A DNA stretch of 64,000 nt. Source: Bradyrhizobium sp. 200. GTDB lineage: Bacteria > Pseudomonadota > Alphaproteobacteria > Rhizobiales > Xanthobacteraceae. The stretch lies in NCBI RefSeq assembly GCF_023100945.1, contig NZ_CP064689.1, positions 4,012,001-4,076,000 on the forward strand, given 5' to 3'. Made by a program: the position numbers and the translations under genes. Below are positions 1 to 5,224 of the stretch, piece after piece (the stretch's first letter is position 1; every line of letters starts with the position of its first letter). Below the pieces are notes generated by a model, which saw only the letters and a program-made list of their open reading frames with translations, was not told the DNA's origin and did not search any database.

Positions 1-201
1 ATGGCGCGAACGAGCGATCCCAACTCAGCCAATTCGCAGTTCTTCATCATGTTCGCCGAAGGCGCGTCGCTGAACGGAAAGTACACCGTGATCGGCGAAG
101 TGGTGGCGGGCATGGACGTGGTCGACAAGATCAAGCGCGGCGAACCTGTTGCCGATCCCGACAAGATGGTGAAGGTGCAGGTCGCATCCGACATCAAGTG
201 A
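1..201 (+). CDS. Peptidyl-prolyl cis-trans isomerase, cyclophilin type (3' part)
   Basis: The C-terminal 66 residues of a cyclophilin; the 5' end lies before the window. Cyclophilins catalyse cis-trans isomerisation of Xaa-Pro bonds. The visible part keeps the cyclophilin core [23 protein letters not shown] and the closing [10 protein letters not shown] segment, which is shared almost word for word with the complete paralogue at 622. The first ATG here is internal to the family fold, so it is not the true start. A downstream gene starts 4 bases after the stop, suggesting an operon of two cyclophilins with a small secreted protein between them. Because the N-terminus is unseen, a periplasmic (signal-peptide) form cannot be excluded. 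Confidence 0.9.
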
Positions 202-3993: not shown

Positions 3994-5019
3994 CTACGCC
4001 ATCGCGCGCTGCGGCAGCAGCTCCGCGATCTGGATCGCATTCAGCGCCGCGCCCTTCAGGAGCTGATCGGCCGACACGAACATCGAGATCGAGTGGCCCG
4101 AGGCATCGCTGAGATCCCGGCGGATGCGGCCGACCAGGACGTCGTCCTGTCCTGACGCATCGATCGGCATCGGGAAGTAGTTCTTCGCCCGGTCGTCGAC
4201 GATCTTGACGCCCGGTGCGTTGGCCAGGATCGCGCGCACGTCATGTTCGGTGATCGGCTTTTCACATTCGAAGGTGATCGCCTCGCAATGGGCGCGCAGT
4301 ACCGGCACGCGGACGCAGGTGACGCCGATCGCGATCTTGTCGTCCTCGAAGATCTTGCGGGTCTCCTTGATCACCTTGGTCTCTTCGTCGTTGTAGCCGG
4401 TCTCGGGATCGATCGCCGTGTTGTGGCTGAAGACGTTGAAGGCATAGGGAAGCGGGATCACCTTGGGCGTAAACGGCCGGCCGTCGAGATAGGCGCGGGT
4501 CGATTCCACCAGCTCTTCCATCGCCGCGGCACCGGCGCCGCTTGCCGCCTGATAGGTCGATATGATCATGCGCTTGATGCGGTTCTGCCGGTGGATCGGC
4601 CACAGCGGCACCAGCGCCGTGATCGCCGAGCAGTTCGGGTTGGCGATGATGCCCTTGTGCTCCCGAATGCGATTGGCGTTGATCTCGGGGATCACCAGCG
4701 GCACGTTCGGGTCCATCCGGAACGCGGAGGAATTGTCGACCACGACCGCGCCGGCCTTCACGGCTGCGGGCGCGAACTTGCGCGAGATGCCGCCACCGGC
4801 CGAGAACAATGCGATATCGACACCCTCGAACGACTTCTCGGTGAGCTCCTCGATCGCGATCTTCTGGCCGCGGAAGTCGATGGTCCTGCCGGCCGAGCGG
4901 GCGCTGGCCAGCGCCTTGAGTTTGCGGACCGGGAAGCCGCGCCTGTTCATGGTGGCGATGAATTCTGCGCCGACAGCGCCGGTCACGCCGACGATGGCAA
5001 CTACGGGTTCGTGGCTCAC
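3994..5019 (-). CDS. asd: Aspartate-semialdehyde dehydrogenase
   Basis: 341 residues, normal length. The enzyme reduces aspartyl phosphate to aspartate semialdehyde with NADPH, the shared step towards lysine/diaminopimelate, threonine and methionine. The N-terminal NADP-binding loop VAIVGVTGAVGAEF, the SAGGGISRKFAP segment, and the active-site Cys130 in IIANPNCSAI are all visible, followed by the SYQAASGAGAAAMEEL loop. Translation starts at GTG with agagg about 10 bases upstream. Upstream lie an intrinsic terminator and a Thr/Lys-rich 23-codon open frame, so expression is probably controlled by attenuation (see the leader-peptide and terminator entries). It is monocistronic here: the next gene downstream is convergent. 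Confidence 0.96.
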   Translation of the reverse strand: MSHEPVVAIVGVTGAVGAEFIATMNRRGFPVRKLKALASARSAGRTIDFRGQKIAIEELTEKSFEGVDIALFSAGGGISRKFAPAAVKAGAVVVDNSSAFRMDPNVPLVIPEINANRIREHKGIIANPNCSAITALVPLWPIHRQNRIKRMIISTYQAASGAGAAAMEELVESTRAYLDGRPFTPKVIPLPYAFNVFSHNTAIDPETGYNDEETKVIKETRKIFEDDKIAIGVTCVRVPVLRAHCEAITFECEKPITEHDVRAILANAPGVKIVDDRAKNYFPMPIDASGQDDVLVGRIRRDLSDASGHSISMFVSADQLLKGAALNAIQIAELLPQRAMA

Positions 5020-5056: not shown

Positions 5057-5090
5057 ACAAAAAAGCCCCGGTCCTTTTCAGGCGGGGCTT
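5057..5090 (-). terminator. Intrinsic terminator (attenuator) in the asd leader
   Basis: Read on the minus strand, an 8-bp stem AAGCCCCG/CGGGGCTT (5090-5083 with 5070-5063) is followed by a run of T (TTTTTT-GTT). It ends about 38 bases before the asd start, inside the asd leader, not after a long gene. The 5' arm with its flank (CCGAAGCCCC, plus strand 5084-5093) can instead pair with GGGGCTCGG of the leader reading frame (plus strand 5133-5141): 9 bp with one bulged A. The two structures exclude each other, as required for attenuation. Confidence 0.8.
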
Positions 5091-5115
5091 CGGTTCAGAT
5101 AATGCGATCGTTCGA

Positions 5116-5187
5116 CTACGCGCGCACGGCTCCCGAGCCCCCGGAGGGTGCTTTGGTTTTCGTGGTCGCTTTGGTCGAAGTCGTCAT
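5116..5187 (-). CDS. Candidate Thr/Lys-rich leader peptide of asd (23 aa)
   Basis: A 24-codon frame starting with ATG, product MTTSTKATTKTKAPSGGSGA then VRA. Six of residues 2-12 are Thr and three are Lys, end products of the pathway that Asd feeds. Its stop codon is about 25 bases before the terminator stem and 97 bases before the asd GTG. The GGC/TCG-containing codons 16-18 form the antiterminator strand. No Shine-Dalgarno sequence precedes the ATG, but the best promoter places the RNA start within a few bases of it, so it may be leaderless, as is known for trpL in Sinorhizobium. Composition, position and structure fit an attenuation leader like thrL; translation is not proven. It could alternatively be a chance small frame. 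Confidence 0.65.
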   Translation of the reverse strand: MTTSTKATTKTKAPSGGSGAVRA

Positions 5188-5195
5188 GGCGCGGA

Positions 5196-5224
5196 CTTAT
5201 GCGGCAGCTCGGGGCCGCCGTCAA
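5196..5224 (-). promoter_or_regulatory. Candidate sigma-70-type promoter of the asd leader
   Basis: On the minus strand TTGACG (5224-5219), a 17-base spacer, then CATAAG (5201-5196). The -35 box is strong, the -10 box moderate. A start site about 7 bases downstream would fall near 5189, next to the leader ATG at 5187. Confidence 0.5.

What the first reader, a model, noticed from the sequence alone, without database searches (positions are those of the whole stretch)
5057..5224. Probable leaderless Thr/Lys attenuator controlling asd
Upstream of asd in the same direction lie, in order, a TTGACG-17-CATAAG promoter that would start RNA near the leader ATG, a 23-codon frame with six Thr and three Lys in residues 2-12, a 9-bp antiterminator pairing (GGGGCTCGG with CCGAAGCCCC, one bulge), and an 8-bp terminator with a T-run before the asd GTG. 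Terminator and antiterminator share one strand, so they exclude each other. Asd leads to Lys and Thr. This fits thrL-like attenuation, but in an alphaproteobacterium with a leaderless arrangement as in Sinorhizobium trpL. I know of no description for asd.
Basis: partly seen in the sequence, partly recalled or inferred. Interest (0 to 1): 0.8.

Follow-up and report, generated by a model that had tools for sequence, protein, structure and literature searches.

The report
Threonine/lysine-sensing switch before asd gene
In front of a second copy of the asd gene, this Bradyrhizobium-type genome carries what looks like a switch of a known type: translation of a tiny threonine- and lysine-rich reading frame should decide whether the RNA stops early or runs on into the gene, and the same design is kept in its relatives.

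Summary
All parts lie on the minus strand where stated. All 113 loci that reach far enough upstream of an asd orthologue (114 examined; 100 distinct sequences, 61 distinct peptides) keep promoter, 22-24-codon Thr/Lys-rich frame and terminator.

Folding supports a switch: a ribosome stalled at codon 8 or 10 frees the antiterminator in 100 of 100 leaders; one at the stop codon leaves the terminator in 100 of 100. Against: no column covariation for the antiterminator, and altered sequences pair in 57-70%.

Best reading: a leaderless ribosome-mediated transcription attenuator sensing Thr, probably also Lys.

The gene is a second asd; the genome's canonical asd lacks such a leader. Two similar leaders, Thr before a short thrS and Lys-Lys before a dapA, also sit on second copies; a weaker match before a DUF1127 gene does not fit this pattern.

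In other families of the order a Thr/Lys frame precedes canonical asd in 52 of 77 upstreams. Prior art: Sinorhizobium SEP5 (2023). Ten searches showed none for Bradyrhizobium. New member of a known kind; no expression data.

The parts
5219..5224 (-). -35 box TTGACG
   Evidence: Sequence; TTGACG in 112 and TTGACT in 1 of 113 loci
5196..5201 (-). -10 box CATAAG, 17 nt from the -35 box and 8 nt from the leader ATG, so the RNA should start at or within about 2 nt of the ATG
   Evidence: Sequence; CATAAG in 103, CTATGG in 7, CATATG in 2, CATAAA in 1 of 113 loci; start site inferred
5116..5187 (-). leader ORF MTTSTKATTKTKAPSGGSGAVRA*, 23 codons plus stop
   Evidence: 22-24 codons (23 in 107) with 3-9 Thr and 1-3 Lys in 113 of 113 loci
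5131..5141 (-). antiterminator 5' arm GGGGCUCGGGA, inside the frame (codons 16-19)
   Evidence: Folds; stability against synonymous versions
5123..5127 (-). antiterminator inner arm GUGCG, pairs with CGCAU 5106-5102
   Evidence: 96.6% of cells paired in 93 sequences
5102..5106 (-). antiterminator inner 3' arm CGCAU
5084..5093 (-). antiterminator outer 3' arm CCGAAGCCCC; its AAGCCCC also forms the terminator 5' arm, so the two structures exclude each other
   Evidence: Sequence and folds
5083..5090 (-). terminator 5' arm AAGCCCCG
   Evidence: six columns GCCCCG invariant in alignment A1
5059..5070 (-). terminator 3' arm CGGGGC and run of six T
   Evidence: T6 in 102 and T7 in 11 of 113 loci
5111..5116 (-). 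GUCGAA right after the frame, possible 1:2 partner of UUCGAC at 5179-5174 in untranslated RNA
   Evidence: Predicted fold; support mixed
3994..5019 (-). asd, genus-type second aspartate-semialdehyde dehydrogenase, 341 aa, GTG start
   Evidence: TIGR01296 412.3 bits, cut-off 324.2; PF01118 and PF02774

Best explanation
It is a leader-peptide transcription attenuator. RNA polymerase starts at or within about two bases of the leader ATG, so the RNA is leaderless or nearly so (inferred from promoter spacing). A ribosome translates the 23-codon frame behind the polymerase. If charged tRNA-Thr (probably also tRNA-Lys) is scarce it stalls within codons 2-11; its leading edge then ends before GGGGCUCGGGA..GUGCG, which pairs with CGCAU..CCGAAGCCCC. 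That takes up the terminator's 5' arm and transcription goes on into asd. If the amino acids are plentiful the ribosome runs to the stop codon and covers the antiterminator, the terminator forms and transcription ends before asd. Shown by sequence and folding: the elements, their conservation, their mutual exclusion and their spacing. Inferred: RNA start, translation, stalling and regulated read-through. The target is a second Asd isozyme, so the likely role is to raise aspartate-pathway capacity when Thr/Lys run short.
For: 113 of 113 loci that reach the region keep promoter, frame and terminator. Thr/Lys lie in residues 2-13, with none after residue 13 in 106 of 113. Antiterminator in 100 of 100 distinct leaders with a stall at codon 8 or 10; terminator in 100 of 100 with a ribosome at the stop and in 90 of 100 free RNAs. 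The antiterminator region is more stable than synonymous versions in 13 of 13 leaders tested (z -1.0 to -4.0). 0 of 5000 shuffles match the frame or the promoter-ATG spacing. The product is a bona fide Asd. Leaders of the same design, Thr before a short thrS (9 of 9 loci) and Lys-Lys before dapA (30 of 30 loci), fit their genes. A leaderless trpL attenuator is known in S. meliloti (PMC7298713, passages).
Against: No column covariation beyond shuffles for the antiterminator (1 cell changed on both sides). The terminator arm still pairs with the frame in 567 of 1000 synonymous and 698 of 1000 shuffled versions. Arm-swap chimeras were only slightly worse for the antiterminator (59.1% of 3000 pairs). 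With a stall at the last Thr/Lys codon it forms in 47 of 100. The 1:2 helix is uncertain: synonymous controls are not clearly beaten, though chimeras of those arms were worse in 77.5%. A weaker model match lies before a DUF1127 gene with no evident link to amino acids. No expression data.
Confidence: 0.85

Rival explanations
1. The leader is mainly a gene for a small RNA or peptide that acts in trans; the terminator ends it and asd is fed by constant read-through.
For: Such trans roles are reported for rnTrpL and peTrpL of S. meliloti, with resistance effects of the counterpart in B. japonicum (PMC7298713, passages). The peptide is conserved in its Thr/Lys pattern.
Against: The second half of the frame changes residues while keeping bases that pair with the terminator arm, and the element sits directly before asd in all 113 loci. 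A trans role would not exclude attenuation.
Confidence: 0.07
2. The frame senses general slowing of translation, or another residue such as Arg, rather than Thr/Lys.
For: One Arg lies between the Thr codons in many leaders (position 7, 43 of 55 distinct 23-mers).
Against: The window leader has Ala there; Thr and Lys dominate residues 2-13 in all 113. Paralogous leaders change the residue with the gene.
Confidence: 0.05
3. A metabolite-binding riboswitch, or a chance frame before an ordinary terminator.
For: Arms rich in G and C pair often by chance (57-70%).
Against: No Rfam match there in the window; 0 of 5000 shuffles; conservation.
Confidence: 0.03

Closest known systems
trpL attenuator (rnTrpL/peTrpL) of Sinorhizobium meliloti, with a counterpart in Bradyrhizobium japonicum
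   Same: Leader frame with clustered control codons, attenuator terminator, RNA starting with the ATG in S. meliloti (PMC7298713, passages)
   Different: Trp instead of Thr/Lys; 14-15-residue peptides; controls trpE(G), not asd
SEP5 of Sinorhizobium meliloti
   Same: Six Thr and three Lys codons clustered in a small frame in a 5'-UTR, gene named aspartate dehydrogenase by the authors, possible leader peptide, translation detected (PMC10117765, passages)
   Different: Described as conserved only in Sinorhizobium and with the cluster near the 3' end of the frame; here the cluster is at the 5' end, a U-run terminator follows and the gene is the second asd. That SEP5 belongs to the order-wide type is my inference
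thrL attenuator of the E. coli thr operon (recalled, no call)
   Same: Thr-rich leader peptide, ribosome-mediated transcription attenuation
   Different: As recalled: thrABC target, Thr and Ile sensing, a 5' UTR with ribosome-binding site. Rfam finds no such family in the window

Membership tests
Ribosome-mediated transcription attenuators of amino-acid genes | Leader frame enriched in codons of the pathway's amino acids | tested here: met
Ribosome-mediated transcription attenuators of amino-acid genes | Intrinsic terminator between leader and gene | tested here: met
   113 of 113 loci with T6-T7; the consensus scan does not list it because of its loop limit
Ribosome-mediated transcription attenuators of amino-acid genes | Antiterminator that shares a strand with the terminator and forms when the ribosome stalls at control codons | tested here: met
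   By folding only: 100 of 100 at codons 8 and 10, controls, no covariation
Ribosome-mediated transcription attenuators of amino-acid genes | Ribosome at the stop codon favours the terminator | tested here: met
   By folding only: 100 of 100
Ribosome-mediated transcription attenuators of amino-acid genes | Protector (1:2) structure in untranslated RNA | tested here: inconclusive
   Terminator in 90 of 100 free RNAs; 1:2 helix support mixed
Ribosome-mediated transcription attenuators of amino-acid genes | Leader translated; read-through depends on the amino acid | not testable with these tools
   No expression data
Leaderless attenuators (S. meliloti trpL type) | RNA starts at the leader ATG | tested here: inconclusive
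   Promoter spacing fits in all 113 loci; the 5' end itself is not testable here
Order-wide canonical-asd Thr/Lys leader | Cluster near the stop codon, no U-run terminator, canonical asd downstream | tested here: not met
   The window element has its cluster at the 5' end, a U-run terminator and the second asd

The most novel reading that the evidence does not exclude
Bradyrhizobium has placed second copies of aspartate-family and threonine enzymes (a second asd, a second dapA, a short ThrS) each under its own leaderless Thr- or Lys-sensing attenuator, while the main copies lack such leaders. Together they would form a starvation regulon without a shared transcription factor, and the terminated leader RNAs or peptides might also act in trans.
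Probability: 0.5. Interest if true: 0.72.

Novelty: new member of a known kind. Interest (0 to 1): 0.6.

Why it matters
I found no description of attenuators on asd, dapA or thrS in Bradyrhizobium in ten searches of open papers (listed in the full report). If true, they would explain how duplicated enzymes of the aspartate family are held in reserve in an important legume symbiont genus. With the Thr/Lys frames before canonical asd in other families of the order (52 of 77 upstreams, 24 of 34 families), the same gene appears to be controlled by Thr/Lys leader frames in two architectures, with and without a transcription terminator. Both are directly testable with reporters.

Tried and rejected
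Chance frame or terminator: rejected. Riboswitch: no Rfam match at this place. Column covariation as proof of the antiterminator: not obtained; arm-swap chimeras were worse than natural in only 59.1% of 3000 pairs. The hairpin inside the frame shows 18 compensated cells but in one column pair, probably few events, so I did not build on it. The 1:2 helix read from single folds is negative in z in 11 of 13 leaders but mostly weakly, while arm swaps were worse in 77.5%: left open. A consensus structure for the canonical-asd leader was tried and given up because the alignments were poor; only folding energies are reported. Of the weaker hits of model R1 I read 18 loci and 20 regions (one of them, L253, was not an R1 hit); many are ordinary gene-end terminators or coding sequence and were set aside.

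Dropped rows: L177 (contig starts inside asd) of 114; L330 and L332 of 79; L121; 2 of 52 outside the length limits. Duplicate genomes between named and unnamed collections were not removed from the 113; identical sequences were merged to 100. Alignment A1 holds 93 of those 100; the seven others were found later with a looser -10 pattern. Canonical asd upstreams were fetched for 59 family loci counted and for 79 loci from the order sample of 130 genomes; the rest were not fetched. The shuffle control covers 59 family and 39 other-family upstreams, not all 77.

Full report
1. The observation. On the minus strand the window reads TTGACG-17-CATAAG-8-ATG, a 23-codon frame MTTSTKATTKTKAPSGGSGAVRA*, an antiterminator arm inside the frame, a terminator with six T, and asd starting with GTG at 5019. 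The frame ranks first of 782 ORFs of 10-60 codons in the window for Thr+Lys in a 12-codon stretch; 0 of 5000 dinucleotide shuffles of the upstream region gave a frame as rich and 0 of 5000 gave the promoter-ATG spacing. A consensus scan lists neither this promoter nor this terminator, because its rules exclude both.

2. Which asd. The genome (9.49 Mb, one contig) has two asd genes. The window copy is a proper Asd (TIGR01296, 412.3 bits, cut-off 324.2). 252 of 265 genomes of the genus have a match at E<=1e-100, a level the canonical copies listed (about 1e-74 to 1e-85) do not reach. The other copy, G000:C1:164793-165785, is 45% identical and of the type found across the family. 75 of the 80 named loci carry the genus name Bradyrhizobium, the closest at 96% identity. 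In the window's family 1 of 59 canonical asd upstreams has a Thr/Lys frame; that of this genome has none.

3. Conservation. Of 114 loci examined 113 reach the region, and all 113 carry the set: TTGAC; CATAAG 103, CTATGG 7, CATATG 2, CATAAA 1; a 17-nt spacer with ATG 7-9 nt below the -10 box in 104, the other 9 with spacers of 15-16 and 8-11 nt; a frame of 23 codons in 107 (22 in 3, 24 in 3) with 3-9 Thr and 1-3 Lys; no Thr/Lys after residue 13 in 106 and one in 7; T6 in 102 and T7 in 11. There are 100 distinct sequences and 61 distinct peptides; some genomes occur twice, once named and once unnamed. Divergent orthologues (77-90% identity) carry it too, including L009 from a neighbouring genus (MITTTQRATTKTPFRAEESARV*, only one Lys).

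4. Structures. Assuming that a ribosome covers about 12 nt from its A-site codon onward (a recalled value), a stall at codon 8 or 10 with RNA made up to the terminator's 3' arm lets the terminator's 5' arm pair with the frame in 100 of 100 distinct leaders; a ribosome at the stop leaves the terminator in 100 of 100; free RNA forms it in 90 of 100; a stall at the last Thr/Lys codon gives the antiterminator in 47 of 100. In the window the antiterminator is GGGGCU.CGG.GA..GUGCG with CGCAU..UC..CCG.A.AGCCCC; in several divergent species GGGCUUCGG faces CCGAAGCCC exactly.

5. Controls. The antiterminator region is more stable than synonymous versions in 13 of 13 leaders tested (z -1.0 to -4.0). But the terminator arm still pairs with the frame in 567 of 1000 synonymous and 698 of 1000 shuffled versions against 100 of 100 natural ones; columns show no covariation beyond shuffles; arm swaps are worse in only 59.1% of 3000 pairs. 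So the antiterminator rests on universal presence, stability and base conservation, not on compensatory change. The hairpin inside the frame has 18 compensated cells in one column pair. The 1:2 helix stays open.

6. Similar leaders in the same genome. A covariance model of the leader also hit, weakly (E 0.07 and 0.4), two leaders that then proved conserved: before a threonyl-tRNA synthetase of 403 aa (TIGR00418 436 bits, cut-off 384, core and anticodon domains only), MKKLLSAALTTTATAYGGSPSGCAR*, and before a DapA (TIGR00674 211.6 bits, cut-off 206.15), MITSSCAALSSKKGPHLGTRDRRAR*. In 40 genus genomes the short thrS was found in 9 at E<=1e-150, one with an internal stop and one matching over 245 of 403 residues; all 9 loci have the Thr leader, 8 with a terminator by my pattern. 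DapA was found in 39 of 40 at E<=1e-90; 30 loci were fetched and 30 have the Lys-Lys leader and a terminator. The stalled-state antiterminator is predicted in 29 of 29 and 8 of 8 distinct leaders; no shuffle control was run for these. The genome also has a stronger DapA (348.9 bits) and a full-length ThrS (674.3 bits), neither with such a leader. A third hit (E 0.007), before a DUF1127 gene, MIKTSCASWTRKNVTRSRWAVEGVVR*, has counterparts in other genomes but no evident link to Thr or Lys, which is a point against reading every such leader as an amino-acid switch. A scan for TTGAC-18-YAT-7..12-ATG found 30 sites in the genome against 7 for the reversed pattern; the script flagged a short frame plus terminator at two of them, asd and thrS, and missed the imperfect dapA terminator seen.

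7. Other families of the order. In 52 of 77 usable canonical asd upstreams (24 of 34 families outside the window's) a Thr/Lys-rich frame lies before asd, its cluster mostly close to the stop codon. For the first 39 of these the count was 30, against 0.32% of shuffles. The stretch from that stop to asd folds with negative z in 48 of 50 (mean -1.52). Rfam has no match in 20 loci scanned, 18 of them such upstreams. I saw no U-run terminator in the stretches printed (the print was cut), which suggests translational rather than transcriptional control (inference).

8. Prior art. Ten searches of open PubMed Central papers listed no description of an attenuator before asd, dapA or thrS in Bradyrhizobium; subscription papers are mostly not held, and listings were capped. 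Passages, not whole texts, were seen of PMC10117765, PMC7298713, PMC4842269 (no asd in the main text, 192 start sites exactly at a start codon), PMC5082802, PMC2965389 and PMC4117421. Vitreschak et al. 2004, cited by the SEP5 paper, was not read.

9. Verdict. A leaderless Thr (probably Thr/Lys) transcription attenuator on a second asd, conserved in the genus, of known mechanism. Features of the class that sequence can test are met, except the 1:2 helix and the RNA 5' end, which are inconclusive. Translation, stalling and regulated read-through are inferred.

Noticed in passing
L257-L334 (upstreams of canonical asd in other families of the order): A Thr/Lys-rich small frame before canonical asd in 52 of 77 usable upstreams, 24 of 34 families, followed by a structured stretch without a U-run in those read; no Rfam match in the 18 scanned.
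   Followed up: partly
L181/L335 (G000:C1:4415587-4415719 +): Thr-rich leaderless-type leader before a short second thrS; the same leader in 9 of 9 loci of the genus sample.
   Followed up: partly
L183/L344 (G000:C1:8202584-8202711 +): Lys-Lys leaderless-type leader and terminator before a second dapA; the same in 30 of 30 loci fetched.
   Followed up: partly
L179 (G000:C1:5427104-5427235 +); L235, L236, L237, L246: Leader frame of 24-26 codons plus terminator before a small gene (DUF1127 in L179); conserved in outline, signal unknown.
   Followed up: no
L255 (G491, asd 63% identical) and L201/L254 (G045, asd 48% identical): Other second asd genes with Thr/Lys frames before a GCCCCG-type hairpin that lacks a U-run.
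   Followed up: no
L048, L050, L084, L105, L110, L111; L153, L154, L172: A palindromic repeat-like insert (GCATGATCCGGAAAAGTGG..CATGC type) between terminator and asd in some species.
   Followed up: no
L074: Record titled Frankia sp. RB7 carries an asd locus 85% identical to this one with the same leader; probably mislabelled or contaminated.
   Followed up: no
L012 (G054): The one canonical asd of 59 in the window's family with a Thr/Lys frame, MASAMATVTKKPATTPSTAKGGTTR*.
   Followed up: no
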